Below are positions 9,098-15,237 of a stretch of 64,000 bases of DNA, piece after piece (position 1 is the first letter of the stretch; every line of letters starts with the position of its first letter). The translations under genes and the position numbers were made by a program. Below the pieces are notes generated by a model. That model ran no database searches. It was not told where the DNA came from and saw nothing but the letters and a program-made list of their open reading frames with translations. This stretch comes from Halobacteriales archaeon QS_1_69_70. GTDB taxonomy: Archaea > Halobacteriota > Halobacteria > Halobacteriales > Haloarculaceae. The stretch spans positions 124,001 through 188,000 of the forward strand of contig PXRI01000008.1 of the NCBI GenBank assembly GCA_003021005.1. Reading direction: 5' to 3'.

Positions 9098-9171
9098 GCC
9101 GCCTTAGCTCAGACTGGGAGAGCACTCGACTGAAGATCGAGCTGTCCCCCGTTCAAATCGGGGAGGCGGCA
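9098..9171 (+). tRNA. tRNA-Phe (anticodon GAA)
   Basis: The sequence folds as a full cloverleaf: 7-bp acceptor stem GCCGCCT/AGGCGGC, D arm GCTC/GAGC, anticodon arm CTCGA-CTGAAGA-TCGAG with anticodon GAA, and T arm CCCCG-TTCAAAT-CGGGG. The discriminator base is A and CCA is not encoded, as usual in haloarchaea. There is no intron. Its 3' end (9150-9171) is the integration site of the element that follows: the same bases return at 15215-15237. Confidence 0.97.
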
Positions 9172-9172
9172 T
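9150..9172. repeat. attL-type direct repeat (tRNA-Phe 3' end)
   Basis: This 23-bp copy begins CGTTCAAATCGGGG and runs through the acceptor stem to one base past the discriminator. It is identical to 15215-15237, and the flanks differ at once on both sides. Confidence 0.85.
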
Positions 9173-9358: not shown

Positions 9359-9874
9359 ATGAGCGAGACGAGTGCAGCCGACCGCTGGCAGCACGAGCGG
9401 ACAACGTTCCAGCGCGTCTACGACGTCCTCGTGGGCTCACAGTCGCTTCTCACCGCCCACGAGTTTGCCGACCGGGCGGCGTGCTCTGAAACCGCGGCTC
9501 GCAACGCGCTCGAACAGCTGGCCGAGATGGGCGTTGCAGAACGCCGTGACGGGCGGCCGGCCCGCTACCGGCGGAACGATTCGTACTTCCGGTGGAAACG
9601 CGTCGAGTCGCTCGCACGCGAACATGATCCCGACGACCTCCACGATCGGCTCGACGATCTCATTGCGGAGGACGAGGCGTTCCAGGACGAGTATGAAGTT
9701 CCTGATCCCGATGCGGTTTCCACAGCTGCTGACATGCCGGTCGACGATCACGATGCCGTACACGACCGCTGGGAAGATCTGAGCGAGTGGCGCACCGTCC
9801 GGCACGACATCAAACTGCTCCGCCGGGCCGTCGAGCGCGCACACGGCCCTGTCGATGACGGTGTACGCGTGTGA
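9359..9874 (+). CDS. Winged-helix protein, DUF7342-like, probable antitoxin of the next gene
   Basis: A 171-residue acidic protein. Residues about 20-75 form a winged helix-turn-helix (VYDVLVGSQSLLTAHEFADR, then CSETAARNALEQLAEMGV and a wing RRDGRPARYRRN). A helical, coiled-coil-prone C-terminal half follows. Proteins of this type sit directly before a small His/Pro-rich protein in haloarchaea. Here the stop overlaps the next start by four bases (9871-9874), so the two are translationally coupled. A paralogous pair lies at 61432-62408 on the other strand, also in HTH-first order. An autoregulating antitoxin is the likely role, inferred from the pairing. Confidence 0.65.
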   Translation: MSETSAADRWQHERTTFQRVYDVLVGSQSLLTAHEFADRAACSETAARNALEQLAEMGVAERRDGRPARYRRNDSYFRWKRVESLAREHDPDDLHDRLDDLIAEDEAFQDEYEVPDPDAVSTAADMPVDDHDAVHDRWEDLSEWRTVRHDIKLLRRAVERAHGPVDDGVRV

Positions 9875-10302
9875 CCAGCGAGGAGTACTCAAGCGGGCCA
9901 CTCGACGTCCCCACGCTCGACGTGATCGCCCAGCGTGCTGTCACCCATTCACTTGTCGACGGGTGGGCGTTCCAGCCGGATTCCAAGTCACCACGGCGGC
10001 TGGAACTCTATTTCGACGAGGATCAGTATCCGTCACCGATTACGGAGGTACGCCTCGACGTTCGGTGGTTCGAGGGTGGCGACTACACTGTTCACTCTCT
10101 CGAGACACGAGATGACGACACCTGGCAGTGTCGCTGGGATCGACACCCCAAGCCCGACGCGTCGAAGGGGCACTTCCATCCACCGCCGGATGCGGCGTCC
10201 GAGGTTGAATCCTCCACCATGCAGGCGACACACCATCTCGGTGTGCTGTTCGGCGTTCTCGACTGGATCACTGAGCGGATCGAGCAGCTCCAGGACGGCT
10301 GA
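9871..10302 (+). CDS. TumE-like (DUF6516-type) putative toxin
   Basis: A 143-residue protein starting at GTG 9871, overlapping the HTH gene. The fold pattern of beta strands followed by WQCRWDRH and a HFHPPPD motif matches TumE-family toxins, which carry an RYDN...PHH-like His cluster. The paralogue at 61432-61866 keeps the same WQCRWxRH and HVHPPP motifs, so these residues are probably functional. The mechanism is not something I can read from the sequence. With the preceding HTH it forms a two-gene toxin-antitoxin-like module. Confidence 0.6.
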   Translation: MTSEEYSSGPLDVPTLDVIAQRAVTHSLVDGWAFQPDSKSPRRLELYFDEDQYPSPITEVRLDVRWFEGGDYTVHSLETRDDDTWQCRWDRHPKPDASKGHFHPPPDAASEVESSTMQATHHLGVLFGVLDWITERIEQLQDG

Positions 10303-10333
10303 CAGGTTCCTAATTAAGCCTCTGTAACCGTTG

Positions 10334-10947
10334 ATGTCGAACGGATCCGGGCATCGTGACGGGCAGAGCGCAATCGTGAGTTCGTCAACGAGCAGTTCCG
10401 TCGACGGACAAGAGCGGAACCGGGTAGCGAGCAGGGCGGCGATAGCACTGTCCCACGTGAAGACCTTTCGCGGGACGATCTCGCGACGGTCAATCGGGAA
10501 GCACAGGGGATCGCCGAAAAGGTCGAGAACGGTCACAGTAGAGCGGCCGTCGTCCGTCTACTCGCCGACAAGGTCGTGGACGGGTAGGAGGTCACCGATG
10601 CGGTGTTCGCCACGCTCGAAGCGGTGAAGCAGATGCCGGGCGTCAGCATCACGATCGACGAGGTGCCGGACGTGCCGGGTGAGGAGGTGAGCGTCAGCGG
10701 TGAGATCGTCCAGTTGTGGCGGCCGAGTAGTTCGGCCATAAGTCAGGTCGGACTGATCGCGGACGAGAGTGGCAAAATCAAATTCACAGTCTGGGAGAAG
10801 AGCGACCAGAGGGGCGTCAGAGAGGGGGATCGTGTCCAGATCAAACACGCGAAGAAGAACTGGTATCAGGGTCGGTGCAGCATCGCACTGACCTACGATA
10901 GCCGGATCGTGTTTCCGGAGCGCGACTGGCAGTGGTGGACGGCGTAG
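10334..10947 (+). pseudogene. Broken gene for a SOSS-B/RPA-like OB-fold single-strand-DNA-binding protein
   Basis: The C-terminal part (from about 10603) reads as a clear OB fold: VPGEEVSVSGEIVQLW, ISQVGLIADESGKIKFTVW, VREGDRVQIKHAKKNWYQGR. It resembles the plasmid- and element-borne SOSS complex subunit B family of haloarchaea. Upstream the same frame codes for the usual helical N-terminal half (DLATVNREAQGIAEKVENGH), but it is closed by TAG at 10585-10587 and TGA at 10357-10359. The likely ATG (10334) is in another frame. So there is one nonsense codon and at least one frameshift. A product from the GTG at 10603 would be a bare OB fold of about 114 residues; that could still be made. Confidence 0.7.
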
Positions 10948-11274
10948 TGGAAGGGGCGCCCTTTTTATCGTGTGTGCCGAACCGACCAGGCCCCCCTACC
11001 CCACCCTCCACTCCCGGCCTCCCTGCGGTCGGCCGGCAGCCACAACCTGAATCAATTCAACTGTAAGGAGCTGAGTACCTCTTCACGCAATCAAAATGGC
11101 AAATTGAATTTATTTTTCTGAAGCTGTTCGGGATACAGGGCACGAGTTCTGCGACAACTTTCACCCAACTAGGAAAGATACTATATAAATTCGGTGTGAA
11201 CAGTTATCAAAGACGAGCAAATAGACAGACTAACATCCGAACAACGAACGAAATAATCACCAAGGAACTCACTA
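10948..11274. promoter_or_regulatory. Intergenic stretch with a GC-skewed repeat and the promoter of the clamp/nuclease operon
   Basis: It holds a T-rich stretch (CCCTTTTTATCG, about 10960) suited to termination after the broken OB-fold gene. The strongly C-rich strand 10961-11012 reappears, inverted, at 56311-56364. Base composition then shifts abruptly to AT-rich. A strong TATA box ACTATATAAAT (11180-11190) with a purine-rich BRE-like AGGAAAG just upstream should start the operon at 11275. The predicted start site near 11212 leaves a leader of about 60 bases, unusual in a genome where leaderless messages dominate. Confidence 0.6.
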
Positions 11275-12447
11275 ATGAATATCGAACGTCTGGAGGAGAC
11301 AGTCAACCAATACTTCCAGAGCGATATTGATAACGACAGGTACCTTTATTTTAAAACCTACTATAGTACCAGGTCGGTTGATTCAGTCGACTTTAACGAC
11401 TTCTTCATCGAACAGATATCCGATGAGGACATCAATATCGATATTGTCAGTAGATCTGGGGGCGAGGTCATCATCCAGACGGAGAAGAGCACAGTTCTGG
11501 TGTTCGGACTTTCTTATGACAACTGGCTAATCGTCTATTCGAGTGCCTTACCAGACAGTCTTCGAAAGTCGCTCGGCCGATTGGGCGACAGTTTTGGGTG
11601 GCTAACGGATTCTTGGGTTCCGAGTGAAACCGTTGAGTCGCTGTATGAAGGGTATTCCGAGCAGCGAGATAAGGTCCGAATCAAACGCCAGTGGGACCCG
11701 TACTACCTGTACAGGAATTTCTCGTCAATTCCGTCGGAGATGCAGGAGTATTACGAGGAGAACCTGACCAAGTTCGAAGAGCAGGAGACGGAATTCAGTC
11801 TCAGGACTCCACGATGGATGGTCGAGGAGGTTCTCAAATCCCAACTATCGGAGGATTTCCTACAACGGTCCCAAGTTACGGAATCACGGTTTGATATCCA
11901 TCTTTCGAATCCAGGTGAAGCCGCTGTCACCGTCGACAAGTCGGGACAGATTACGCATCGCTCTGGTGAACCTGACGCGACAATAAAGGTCGTCAACGAT
12001 GTCATAGGAAAGGACGAAGAACTCCACTCGGAGTTTGCCGAAGTCGTCCCTGAGAAGGAGTACTCAACCACGAGTGGCGGAATGAAACTGATTGACAGCT
12101 ATGAACCGCCAAAGATTCTCCGCCTCAGGTTCCCCGAGAGCAACTACAACGAAGAGTCCACAATCAAGCTTTCTAATCTACTGACAGTCGGTCAGTCGGA
12201 CGCTAACTTCCACGGCTTCGTCAGCAGTCGCGACGGCTTGGAGTTTCGATGCCATTCATACAATACCTTCGACCAGTCCGAGTTCGAGATTCTATTCACT
12301 GAATACCGAGGTGACCCGACCCTATATGTCCGACCTATTGAAACCACCGTAAACGGGGTCATCAACCTGTATCAGACGCTTAAGTCGAAATTCGGCACTA
12401 CCATCGAACGCGACACGCTGGACGAGATGGAATTCGTGGAGAGGTAG
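11275..12447 (+). CDS. Unrecognised 390-residue protein, first gene of the nuclease/clamp operon
   Basis: I do not recognise this family. It is a soluble acidic protein with no signal peptide, membrane segment, P-loop or obvious catalytic motif. The N-terminal 100 residues look like an alpha/beta sensor domain (EVIIQTEKSTVLVFGLSYDN, then a strand IVYSS). The middle (about 150-185) is helical and charged. The C-terminal 150 residues are beta-rich. Codon usage is markedly more AT-rich than the core genome, like the two genes that follow. It ends 9 bases before the nuclease gene, so the three are one transcription unit. By position it may be the recognition or regulatory subunit; that is inference. 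Confidence 0.8.
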   Translation: MNIERLEETVNQYFQSDIDNDRYLYFKTYYSTRSVDSVDFNDFFIEQISDEDINIDIVSRSGGEVIIQTEKSTVLVFGLSYDNWLIVYSSALPDSLRKSLGRLGDSFGWLTDSWVPSETVESLYEGYSEQRDKVRIKRQWDPYYLYRNFSSIPSEMQEYYEENLTKFEEQETEFSLRTPRWMVEEVLKSQLSEDFLQRSQVTESRFDIHLSNPGEAAVTVDKSGQITHRSGEPDATIKVVNDVIGKDEELHSEFAEVVPEKEYSTTSGGMKLIDSYEPPKILRLRFPESNYNEESTIKLSNLLTVGQSDANFHGFVSSRDGLEFRCHSYNTFDQSEFEILFTEYRGDPTLYVRPIETTVNGVINLYQTLKSKFGTTIERDTLDEMEFVER

Positions 12448-12456
12448 TCGAAATAG

Positions 12457-13419
12457 ATGAATCGCAACCTGGTCACTGATCCTGATTTTGACGATCCTCA
12501 TGCCTATACCTTGAGTAAACTTTACACGCTGTATCGAGTCGATATGAGCGGGCTAGGTAACCTCTCTGATATCGGATATATGGGATATCCCGATCCACGT
12601 TTTGAGAGCGAGAAGAAAGGCCCATACACCCCTGACTTTCTCTCTATCGGCGAAATGGGCGACGCTCAAATTATCGATGTAAAGGGCTTTGAGAATATTG
12701 AGACTTACATCGACCGACGCTCAGACGTTGAGGACAAAATTAAATCGGTGATTGAGGACCTGCAGAAGTACCAGAATGTTACTCCTTCAATGGTAGCAGA
12801 TTACCTTACTCTACACGATATCTCCTATAAGCCCGATCATCACGAGTTGGTCGTTCTCTTCCCACATGAAGTGTACACGAAGTACGAATCTACAGTTGTC
12901 AGTACTGCAGAATCGTTAGGTCTACGGGTATGGGTTCTCGAAGAAAACTCCGTTGAACACCTCTGGTTAGCCCATGGAGAACACAAAAATCAGACGCTCA
13001 CCGATCATATAGAACGAGGAAGCGGTCGAGGCATTCAGGTGTATCAAGGTGGCAAGGACTTAATTCCGTTCGCGAGAGACACAGACAAGGATATTGTCCG
13101 TTTTCATTTTGCTGCCAATATCACAGCCTATTGCTCTCATGAGAGGAAATTAGAGTTCAGATTCGACGAAATCGACGATATTCTCGTAAATAAACAGCGG
13201 CCACAGATGTTCAGCCATCTCCCTGCATCTGAGCGCGAAGAGATCTGGAGGGATTGTATCCGCCAAATGCGAGACCGATTTAATCTCGTCTCTCGAACGA
13301 CAGCCATCAATGACACGTACGAGTGGGAAAAGAAGCGGTTCCTCAAACAACCTCGCGACCGATACAAAATCCTACAAGATGTAGGTGAGGAACTCGGGGT
13401 GTTCGACGAAGACCAATGA
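12457..13419 (+). CDS. PD-(D/E)XK-type nuclease
   Basis: A 320-residue protein. Residues 57-77 carry the nuclease core: PYTPDFL (Pro59-Asp60), a strand and turn, then QIIDVKG (Asp74, Lys76), the PD...(D/E)xK arrangement of restriction-type and Holliday-type endonucleases. A helical region after it (about 85-125) is followed by a beta-alpha region that ends in HELVVLFPHEVYTKYE. A C-terminal helical domain (about 235-310) has many Arg/Lys residues suited to DNA contact. A purine-rich GGAGAGGT 11 bases before the ATG can act as ribosome binding site. It is sandwiched between the unknown gene and a PCNA-like clamp gene, whose ATG overlaps its stop (ATGA). No canonical PIP box (QxxhxxFF) is evident. 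Confidence 0.78.
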   Translation: MNRNLVTDPDFDDPHAYTLSKLYTLYRVDMSGLGNLSDIGYMGYPDPRFESEKKGPYTPDFLSIGEMGDAQIIDVKGFENIETYIDRRSDVEDKIKSVIEDLQKYQNVTPSMVADYLTLHDISYKPDHHELVVLFPHEVYTKYESTVVSTAESLGLRVWVLEENSVEHLWLAHGEHKNQTLTDHIERGSGRGIQVYQGGKDLIPFARDTDKDIVRFHFAANITAYCSHERKLEFRFDEIDDILVNKQRPQMFSHLPASEREEIWRDCIRQMRDRFNLVSRTTAINDTYEWEKKRFLKQPRDRYKILQDVGEELGVFDEDQ

Positions 13420-14174
13420 CCACGTCTATTCGACTTCCACAGAGTAGTCTAAAAGAGATACTGGATAGCATAGACGAGCTGGTCAAATTCTCCGAAGGTG
13501 CTGCTATTGACCTGAATCTTACCACCGACGACGGATGCGTTCTCATTTACGCTCATCCACCAAGTATGTCCTTGGTCCATGAACTCGTTCCAAGTGACGA
13601 CGTAGAGATCTCTACTGATGAAGAGGGGGAACGGATTTGTCTGAATCCTAACGATCTGATGGATGTGGTCACGAAAGCCGAAGAAGGGATGCTCGAAATT
13701 GAGTTTTTGGATTATGACTACGTCGTCAGATATGAAGAAGAAGAGATATTTTCGGAGCCGTTAACCCTACGCCTTAGGCGATTCGTCGATACAGAATTTG
13801 AAGAACCCCCTGAGGTTGGGGACCTCAAGAGCCTCGGCTCACTCAACAGGATATCGCTATCACGAGCACTGAACGTAATGAGTACTGTATCTCCAGTCGT
13901 CAAAGTTACCGTTGACAAAGGGATGCTCTCTTTAAAGGTGGAGGACAAAGTTTCAGGTGAGGGAGAGGTTAGCCCAAAACTCACGAATTCTCAAGTAGAA
14001 TACTTCGAGGCGTGGTACTCAATCGAACCACCGATCCAATTCCTCCGGAAAATAACTAGTGATGAAAATGTAGACTTGTTAATTACAGAAAACAGTACTC
14101 TCGTCTTAGAGGTAGAATCAGATAACAAACACTCGAGACTATTTTTGGCTCCACGGGTTGAGGAACCTCAGTAG
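13416..14174 (+). CDS. Diverged PCNA-like sliding clamp
   Basis: A 252-residue protein of PCNA length. It follows the archaeal PCNA plan across its whole length. The helix SSLKEILDSIDELVKF at the N-terminus matches the first clamp helix, and LNPNDLMDVVTKAEEG matches the 'L..L..I...A..G' helix of domain 1. An interdomain connector (about 119-139, LRRFVDTEFEEPPEVGDL) matches the 'IDPDSIRQEPDIPDL' loop of haloarchaeal PCNA. The C-terminus LFLAPRVEE matches the usual YMLAPRI tail. Sequence identity to chromosomal PCNA is clearly low, so it is a paralogue and not a recent copy. It overlaps the nuclease gene by four bases, so the two are translationally coupled. It may load or guide the nuclease on DNA, or act as a decoy clamp; both are inference. 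Confidence 0.75.
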   Translation: MTTSIRLPQSSLKEILDSIDELVKFSEGAAIDLNLTTDDGCVLIYAHPPSMSLVHELVPSDDVEISTDEEGERICLNPNDLMDVVTKAEEGMLEIEFLDYDYVVRYEEEEIFSEPLTLRLRRFVDTEFEEPPEVGDLKSLGSLNRISLSRALNVMSTVSPVVKVTVDKGMLSLKVEDKVSGEGEVSPKLTNSQVEYFEAWYSIEPPIQFLRKITSDENVDLLITENSTLVLEVESDNKHSRLFLAPRVEEPQ

Positions 14175-14344
14175 GATACTGTTAACGCGTTGGTCTCACA
14201 TTCTATCTATCAGTGCCTGGATTTATAGACTCCTAACATGGGGTTGAAGCTCCACTTAGGAACGTTTCACGACTTGATTTTGTCGGCCCCTGATGGGTGA
14301 GGGACCTGTCACAACAGCACCTCCCTCGTAACTAGGTGAGAGTC

Positions 14345-14482
14345 ATGGCAAGCAGAGACATCTACGAGAACGCGTTCGACGAGGACGTACAGGTAACGGT
14401 GGTAACAGTCTACGAGGACTGTGGACTCGTGCTCGAATTCCATCCGATCGACCATGGTCCCGTGGCGGTCCTTCGAGGATAA
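14345..14482 (+). CDS. Possible small protein, 45 aa
   Basis: An ATG frame of 45 codons with acidic, haloarchaea-like content (MASRDIYENAFDEDVQVTVV) ending PIDHGPVAVLRG. It lies after the clamp operon, in a stretch where everything else is decayed, so it may be the stub of a longer protein. Function unknown. Confidence 0.35.
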   Translation: MASRDIYENAFDEDVQVTVVTVYEDCGLVLEFHPIDHGPVAVLRG

Positions 14483-15214
14483 TGAGACGAATTCGGAGCA
14501 AACCGGTGCGCCGCTCACGCCGACCCGTCACGATCGCGGGCTCTCGACCGAAATCTGGTACAAGATTGACGGCAGCGGGAATACGCTCTCGGGGTCGAAG
14601 CATTGCCAACTCGGGCGGCTCCGGCGCGAGCATGTTCGTGGCCGCTGGCGCTCCAAAGCCGAACGGAATCTCGGCAACTGATAGAAGACACTACCGTCGT
14701 GGTCTTCGAATGCCTGTTTGACGAGCCGTGTCTTTCCGAGTCGGCGGCGGCCGTACACGACAGCTAGTTTCGCGTCGTTAGAATCGAAGAGGGCTCGCAG
14801 GCGGGTGAGCTCCTCCGGTAAACTCCTCCGTTCGGTTCAGGAAGTCCGGCATGTACGCTGCCGTGCAGAGGGAGCAATAAAAATACTCTGAATAATCGTA
14901 CTTGGGAGTATCATAATTGCAGGTATCATATTTGTTCTCGGTCAGGAGCATTATCCAGTTTTGGGTACTCCCTATAACACCACACCCGCACTTACCCTCA
15001 TCACAGTCGTAGCCACGAAGGCATGCCCGCTACCCAAATCATGTGTCGCTGGCGATCCGGAGCGACTCGTGTGCCTCAACGGATACCAGATCTGGGAGCG
15101 AAGCGACCGAGTCCGTGAGCCGGAACTCTGCTCCCGATCCGCTTTGAGCCGACGAGTCGCAGCCCCGGAACGGCGCGAGCACCGCGAGCGCCGCACGCCC
15201 AGAACCTCTCGGTT
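14483..15214. other. Decayed right end of the tRNA-Phe element
   Basis: Apart from the ATPase remnant noted separately, I see no intact gene. Several short frames exist on both strands without support. The GC content rises toward 15.1 kb, so this part probably has a different origin from the AT-rich operon. Confidence 0.45.
14680..14852 (-). pseudogene. Remnant of an archaeal-type P-loop ATPase (Arch_ATPase family)
   Basis: On the reverse strand an ATG at 14852 opens MPDFLNRTEE. After a frame change the sequence continues as EELTRLRALFDSNDAKL and VVYGRRRLGKTRLVKQAF, the N-terminus and Walker A region of archaeal-ATPase-family proteins. The frame change coincides with a near-perfect 13-bp tandem duplication (14804-14816 and 14817-14829), which is probably the cause. 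The similarity ends soon after the Walker A strand near 14680; the rest is missing. Confidence 0.6.
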
Positions 15215-15237
15215 CGTTCAAATCGGGGAGGCGGCAT
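15215..15237. repeat. attR-type direct repeat
   Basis: This is an exact 23-bp copy of the tRNA-Phe 3' end (9150-9172). The sequence to its left does not continue the tRNA, so only the 3' part is present, as expected for the distal attachment site. Confidence 0.85.

What the first reader, a model, noticed from the sequence alone, without database searches (positions are those of the whole stretch)
11275..14174. Operon of an unknown protein, a PD-(D/E)XK nuclease and a diverged PCNA-like clamp inside a tRNA-Phe element
Seen: three same-strand genes with a 9-base gap and a 4-base overlap, AT-rich against the core, with one strong TATA box at 11180-11190. The second has PYTPDFL...QIIDVKG (Asp60, Asp74, Lys76). 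The third has PCNA length, helices, interdomain connector and the APRV tail. Known: chromosomal PCNA recruits nucleases (FEN1, XPF, RNase HII) through PIP boxes. Inference: an element-borne clamp with its own nuclease could be a DNA-targeting defence or a plasmid/virus competition system, with the 390-residue protein as sensor or regulator. I know of no described system with this composition.
Basis: partly seen in the sequence, partly recalled or inferred. Interest (0 to 1): 0.9.

Follow-up and report, generated by a model that had tools for sequence, protein, structure and literature searches.

The report
Mobile operon with its own clamp
Three genes found together in several salt-loving archaea encode a spare DNA sliding clamp, a protein shaped like a DNA-cutting enzyme and an unknown partner; some copies sit among antiviral genes, so this may be an undescribed defence system built around its own clamp.

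Summary
Three tightly spaced genes (A 390 aa, B 320 aa, C 252 aa) lie in an AT-rich 6.1-kb stretch bounded by a 23-nt repeat of the tRNA-Phe 3' end. C is predicted to be a sliding-clamp protomer, matching PCNA along its whole length (best Z 24.5). The trio occurs in the same order in 5 other haloarchaeal genomes; every A, B or C hit in the genome sets searched lay in a trio. B has a PD-(D/E)XK-like fold plus a winged-helix-like domain. Three of those 5 loci lie within 22 kb of known or candidate defence genes; a weak partial match to the membrane protein sits inside a BREX operon. No library or paper search used here returned a described system of this composition. Best reading: a mobile, probably defensive module using a dedicated clamp as a DNA-bound platform. 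Defence role and mechanism are inferred, untested.

The parts
9098..9171 (+). tRNA-Phe(gaa), likely integration site of the element
   Evidence: ARAGORN
9150..9172 (+). attL-like repeat: 3' end of tRNA-Phe, 23 nt
   Evidence: exact 23-nt direct repeat with 15215-15237
15215..15237 (+). attR-like repeat, right edge of the 6.1-kb element
   Evidence: exact 23-nt copy of the tRNA-Phe 3' end
11182..11189 (+). TATA box candidate of the operon
   Evidence: TATATAAA; one of 3 copies in the window, all on the + strand
11275..12447 (+). gene A, 390-aa protein of unknown fold (31-38% identical to its relatives)
   Evidence: no credible family or PDB match
12457..13419 (+). gene B, 320 aa: PD-(D/E)XK-like domain (about residues 13-183) and C-terminal winged-helix-like domain (about 210-313); D60/D74/K76 complete only in this member of six
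   Evidence: model pLDDT 86; fold matches; conservation
13416..14174 (+). gene C, 252-aa diverged PCNA-like sliding-clamp protomer
   Evidence: model pLDDT 81, pTM 0.82; Foldseek to PCNA E 1.9e-14; best Z 24.5; NCBIfam sliding-clamp model E 6.7e-6 over residues 8-250, below its cut-off
9359..9874 (+). element gene: DUF7342 winged-helix-like protein, probably not part of the trio module
   Evidence: Pfam PF24033 E 4e-26
10603..10947 (+). element gene: possible OB-fold protein, 114 aa
   Evidence: PF01336 E 0.0015, below the gathering score

Best explanation
Genes A, B and C are one mobile, tightly spaced module of haloarchaea, most likely an anti-virus or anti-plasmid system built around a dedicated sliding clamp. 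Supported by calls: conserved order and co-occurrence, predicted clamp fold of C, predicted fold of B, a tRNA-derived repeat at both edges of the window's element. Inferred: C forms a ring on DNA (alone, or mixed with host PCNA) and holds B, through its nuclease-like and winged-helix-like domains, and A on replicating DNA. A acts as recogniser or switch. The outcome is to stall or mark foreign replication. The window's B could still cleave DNA, because its D60/D74/K76 site is intact. In the relatives, which lack that site, the effect would be non-nucleolytic, possibly passed to the convergent membrane-protein-like gene product, which the window's locus lacks.
For: Trio in the same order in 6 genomes of 4 genera, with gaps of -4 to +9 nt. 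Every hit for A, B or C at E <= 0.001 lies in a trio: C in 4 of 97 and 5 of 391 genomes, A in 4 of 392 and 2 of 344, B in 1 of 125, C by profile in 1 of 148 and 4 of 146; sets overlap, and include the own genome. A occurs once in each of the 6 trio genomes. The identity patterns of A, B and C agree (Spearman 0.86-0.94). Clamp fold. Horizontal spread: the window's proteins are 26-37% identical to those of two genomes of its own genus. Defence neighbours: BrxB, BrxC, PglX, PglZ and BrxL and an AAA_5 gene with a weak DUF2357 neighbour in Halohasta; DpdA-like and PDC-S62 in Natrialba; type II R-M and OLD/AriA-like genes in Natronomonas CBA1123. A convergent membrane-protein-like gene within 13 nt of C in 5 of 5 other loci; the family of four is rare (3 of 242 genomes, one of them a trio genome), occurs in the trio genomes only at the trio, and has a weak partial match inside a BREX operon.
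Against: No PADLOC model matches A, B or C credibly. In the other 2 of 5 loci (G038, N. gomsonensis) I saw no clear defence neighbour; their ORFs were mostly read by eye, with only 1 flank protein of N. gomsonensis scanned (weak mad8 match) and none of the G038 flanks except the DUF2254 protein. I recognised none in the window. Neighbours to scan were hand-picked, with no random-locus control. B lacks the catalytic K in 5 of 6. No PIP signal above background. The membrane-protein family is missing in the window and in G038 and occurs without A in 2 other genomes. No function was tested.
Confidence: 0.45

Rival explanations
1. Element maintenance or replication module: the mobile element carries its own clamp, with a DNA-binding partner, to replicate or stabilise itself, as PCNA-carrying haloviruses may do (recalled).
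For: It lies between att-like repeats. An extra PCNA gene of Natrialba magadii has been traced to the virus PhiCh1 (PMC3404096, passages read). A tyrosine recombinase gene lies near the trio in Natronomonas CBA1123, with a look-alike in N. gomsonensis (by eye).
Against: No polymerase, primase, helicase or initiator was recognised among the six element ORFs scanned; ORFs right of C were not scanned. Flanks differ between most loci. No relatives in viral contigs (A, B, C), phage records (A, B, C) or plasmid records (A, B, C).
Confidence: 0.2
2. DNA-repair or mutagenesis cassette: B is a NucS-like or XisH-like protein tethered by a special clamp.
For: B's nuclease-like domain aligns with NucS/EndoMS (Z 8.5) and an XisH-type protein (Z 10.1), and an MmcB-like phage protein tops the viral list.
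Against: The domain order differs from NucS (recalled: the nuclease domain is C-terminal there). The D-x-K is not conserved. The distribution is rare and apparently horizontal, unlike housekeeping repair.
Confidence: 0.15
3. One reading: a clamp-tethered active nuclease that cleaves foreign DNA.
For: The window's B keeps a canonical D60...D74-V-K76 around a predicted beta hairpin.
Against: Column 74 is K/G/E/T/S and column 76 is V/C/V/E/I in the 5 relatives, while D60, D69 and Q71 are invariant.
Confidence: 0.15

Closest known systems
PCNA / archaeal DNA polymerase sliding clamp
   Same: Two-domain clamp fold over the whole length, 252 aa, an APRV tail in two of the six members.
   Different: 12-20% identity in the listed PDB matches. 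Not matched by Pfam PCNA_N at E <= 10, and hhalign to haloarchaeal PCNA was weak. It is additional to the host PCNA, found elsewhere in 5 of 5 other trio genomes; none was found in the own, incomplete assembly.
Extra haloarchaeal and viral PCNA copies (PMC3404096)
   Same: A second clamp gene, in at least one case acquired horizontally (passages read).
   Different: Those were collected as PCNA_N/PCNA_C homologues. No operon partners were described in the passages read.
XisH-type, AF1548, Can2/Cdn1, NucS and other PD-(D/E)XK-fold proteins
   Same: Fold of B residues 13-183 (Z 8.5-10.1).
   Different: No sequence-level hit. B has a C-terminal winged-helix-like domain and a D-x-K that is not conserved.
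BREX, Dpd, type II R-M and McrBC-like defence loci
   Same: Genomic neighbourhood in 3 of 5 other loci.
   Different: None of A, B, C credibly matches a PADLOC model.

Membership tests
Sliding clamp (PCNA-like) | Two-domain clamp fold along the whole protein | tested here: met
   predicted model: Foldseek E 1.9e-14; best Z 24.5, 239 residues aligned, rmsd 2.7
Sliding clamp (PCNA-like) | Sequence homology to sliding clamps | tested here: met
   NF002222 E 6.7e-6 over 8-250, but 25.8 bits against a cut-off of 207; all 17 PDB sequences found by profile A3 are clamps, best E 2.4e-4. PF00705 not matched; hhalign to haloarchaeal PCNA 6%
Sliding clamp (PCNA-like) | Ring that encircles DNA | not testable with these tools
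   no multimer prediction available
Sliding clamp (PCNA-like) | Partners bound through PIP boxes | tested here: inconclusive
   0 strict Q-type motifs in 12 A/B proteins; 2 in 1 of 4 membrane-family proteins; relaxed patterns recur at unrelated columns
PD-(D/E)XK nuclease superfamily | Core fold | tested here: met
   VIA Z 10.1 to 2okf, 9.6 to AF1548, 9.1 to Can2 and Cdn1; Foldseek against PDB best E only 1.5e-3
PD-(D/E)XK nuclease superfamily | Catalytic D...(D/E)xK conserved across the family | tested here: not met
   D60 in 6 of 6; D or E at 74 in 2 of 6; K76 in 1 of 6, the window
Known defence systems in PADLOC-DB 2.0.0 | A component matches a model | tested here: not met
   best E 0.013 (B, PtuA) and 0.017 (C, AbiLi), no match for A
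Defence system (functional) | Protects against virus or plasmid | not testable with these tools
   needs an experiment

The most novel reading that the evidence does not exclude
An immune system with its own sliding clamp: C forms a ring, or poisons host or viral clamp rings, on invading replication forks; A and the nuclease-shaped B read that state; the convergent membrane-protein-like product, where present, executes growth arrest. Clamp engagement, rather than a DNA sequence or a small molecule, would be the sensing step.
Probability: 0.2. Interest if true: 0.92.

Novelty: categorically new. Interest (0 to 1): 0.74.

Why it matters
Sliding clamps are replication hubs, and my searches returned no described defence or mobile system with its own dedicated clamp. 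If the module is defensive, it would show that immunity can be built on a clamp and make that testable in a genetically tractable archaeon. If it is not, it is still a conserved, apparently horizontally moving clamp operon whose purpose is unexplained.

Tried and rejected
Rejected: B as a confirmed nuclease (complete D-x-K in 1 of 6). PIP box at the N-terminus of A: relaxed pattern in 4 of 6, but two other columns (one in A, 4 of 6; one in B, 5 of 6) fit it as well, so it is background; two strict matches occur in one membrane-family protein only. A related to B or C: hhalign probabilities of 0.6% and 0.2%. Membrane-gene remnant in the window: best tblastn E 0.06, far from C, no profile match in the own genome. 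att repeat of the tRNA-Ala 3' end in the G038 locus: not found within 18 kb.

Led nowhere: Pfam, PADLOC, NCBIfam, PHROGs and PDB searches with A (best PDB E 0.012 to a fimbrial protein, taken as chance); viral-contig, phage and plasmid searches; the first genome-contig scan with C; hhalign of C against host PCNA, probability 6% over 37 columns. Most subscription papers, and all bioRxiv holdings, were outside the library.

Full report
Observation. The stretch is bounded by tRNA-Phe and by an exact 23-nt copy of the tRNA 3' end at 15215-15237, which reads as a 6.1-kb integrated element. No integrase was recognised among the six element ORFs scanned, so it may be non-autonomous or decayed; ORFs right of C were not scanned.

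Gene C is a predicted sliding clamp. Pfam PCNA models do not reach it; single-protein Pfam gives only a weak bacterial beta-clamp match (E 0.024). Over the six members, two bacterial clamp domains match at best E 1.8e-5 (1 member) and 2.8e-4 (3 members). NCBIfam gives a sliding-clamp model over residues 8-250 at E 6.7e-6, below the curated cut-off. A profile of the six members finds 17 PDB sequences, all clamps, best E 2.4e-4. hhalign to haloarchaeal PCNA was weak (6%), a result against a close relation. The AlphaFold2 model (pLDDT 81, pTM 0.82) matches PCNA along its whole length: the 50 listed Foldseek rows are PCNA entries, E 1.9e-14 at best, and the best Z is 24.5 over 239 residues.

Trio conservation. 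At E <= 0.001, relatives of C were found in 4 of 97 genomes and 5 of 391; of A in 4 of 392 and 2 of 344; of B in 1 of 125; of C by profile in 1 of 148 and 4 of 146. The sets overlap, and include the own genome. Two known trio genomes (G015, G325) are not among the hits; searched directly they match strongly, so they were probably not drawn. All hits fall on six loci, each holding A-B-C in order, with A-B gaps of -1 to +9 nt and B-C gaps of -4 to +3 nt. A is found once in each of the six genomes. A scan of the GTDB contig collection with two A patterns gave those four only. Pairwise identities are 31-49% for A, 27-43% for B and 21-39% for C, and the three matrices agree (Spearman 0.86-0.94 over 15 non-independent pairs). 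The window is in the genus of CBA1123 and N. gomsonensis, yet its proteins are 26-37% identical to theirs, while the PCNA of CBA1123 is 93% and 90% identical to those of two other genomes of the genus. This points to horizontal transfer. Host PCNA lies elsewhere in 5 of 5 other trio genomes; none was found in the own assembly, which is 82% complete. No relative was found in viral contigs, phage records or plasmid records with A, B or C queries.

Gene B. The model (pLDDT 86) has a PD-(D/E)XK-like N-terminal domain: Z 10.1 to an XisH-type protein, 9.6 to AF1548, 9.1 to Can2 and Cdn1, 8.5 to NucS. A C-terminal winged-helix-like domain matches Cdc6, Stn1 and MukE chains at Z about 8. Foldseek against PDB alone is borderline (best E 1.5e-3; viral library best 4.6e-5), and Z 7-8 is usual background by the tool's own note. 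The catalytic signature is the weak point: D60 is invariant, but column 74 reads D,K,G,E,T,S and column 76 reads K,V,C,V,E,I over window, G038, CBA1123, N. gomsonensis, Natrialba, Halohasta. D69 and Q71 are invariant, and column 72 is H in the five relatives but I in the window. Either the window copy alone is an active nuclease or the family does not depend on that site.

Gene A has no credible match in Pfam, NCBIfam, PHROGs, PADLOC or PDB. It carries invariant WDPY and LTVGQ stretches. Its fold was not predicted.

A fourth part. In 5 of 5 other loci a convergent gene ends within 13 nt of C (-13 to +13). Four are one family (35-44% identical), membrane proteins by the look of a hydrophobic stretch; in G038 it is a DUF2254 predicted membrane protein. 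The family was found in 3 of 242 genomes: the Natrialba trio genome, G145 about 6 kb from cas1, and a weak partial match (E 5.5e-7) in G061 between BrxC and PglX genes of a BREX operon. In four trio genomes its only copy is beside the trio; G038 and the own genome have none, and G145 and G061 have no A. So the link to the trio is frequent, not exclusive.

Defence context. Halohasta: an AAA_5 gene with a weak DUF2357 neighbour (McrBC-like by recall) ends 416 nt from the trio, and BrxB, BrxC, PglX, PglZ and BrxL begin 8.6 kb downstream. Natrialba: a SWIM protein matching the candidate model PDC-S62 (E 3e-25) 1 kb away and a DpdA-like protein 17-18 kb away. CBA1123: type II R-M and OLD/AriA-like genes 16-22 kb away. 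For G038 and N. gomsonensis I saw no clear defence gene by eye; 1 N. gomsonensis flank protein was scanned (weak mad8 match). Proteins to scan were hand-picked, so this is an association without a control.

Reading. I put a defensive role with a clamp platform at 0.45, with mechanism steps inferred. No library or paper search used here returned this composition. The closest print I saw is the report of extra haloarchaeal PCNA genes (PMC3404096, passages).

Noticed in passing
L054:9288-9917 (G061) and L053:9205-9855 (G145): Relatives of the convergent membrane-protein family lie inside a BREX operon (weak partial match) and about 6 kb from a cas1 gene and an apparent CRISPR array (array by eye), in genomes without gene A.
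   Followed up: partly
window 14343-14758 (-): Short minus-strand ORFs with a GRRRLGKTRLV stretch between C and attR look like a broken archaeal ATPase gene (read from translations).
   Followed up: no
window 9359-10947: The element also carries a DUF7342 winged-helix-like gene, a 143-aa ORF and a possible OB-fold gene.
   Followed up: no
genomes: 8 of 40 haloarchaeal genomes carry two or three PCNA_N matches, so extra recognisable PCNA copies are common there; this clamp family is not matched by that model.
   Followed up: no
window 24235-51367: A large AT-richer cluster of epimerase-like, glycosyltransferase-like and transport-like genes, probably surface polysaccharide synthesis (by eye).
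   Followed up: no
L006:5590-6678 and L007:4549-5556: A XerC-like tyrosine recombinase (L006 scanned; L007 by eye) and a small winged-helix-like gene (by eye) precede the trio in both Natronomonas loci.
   Followed up: partly
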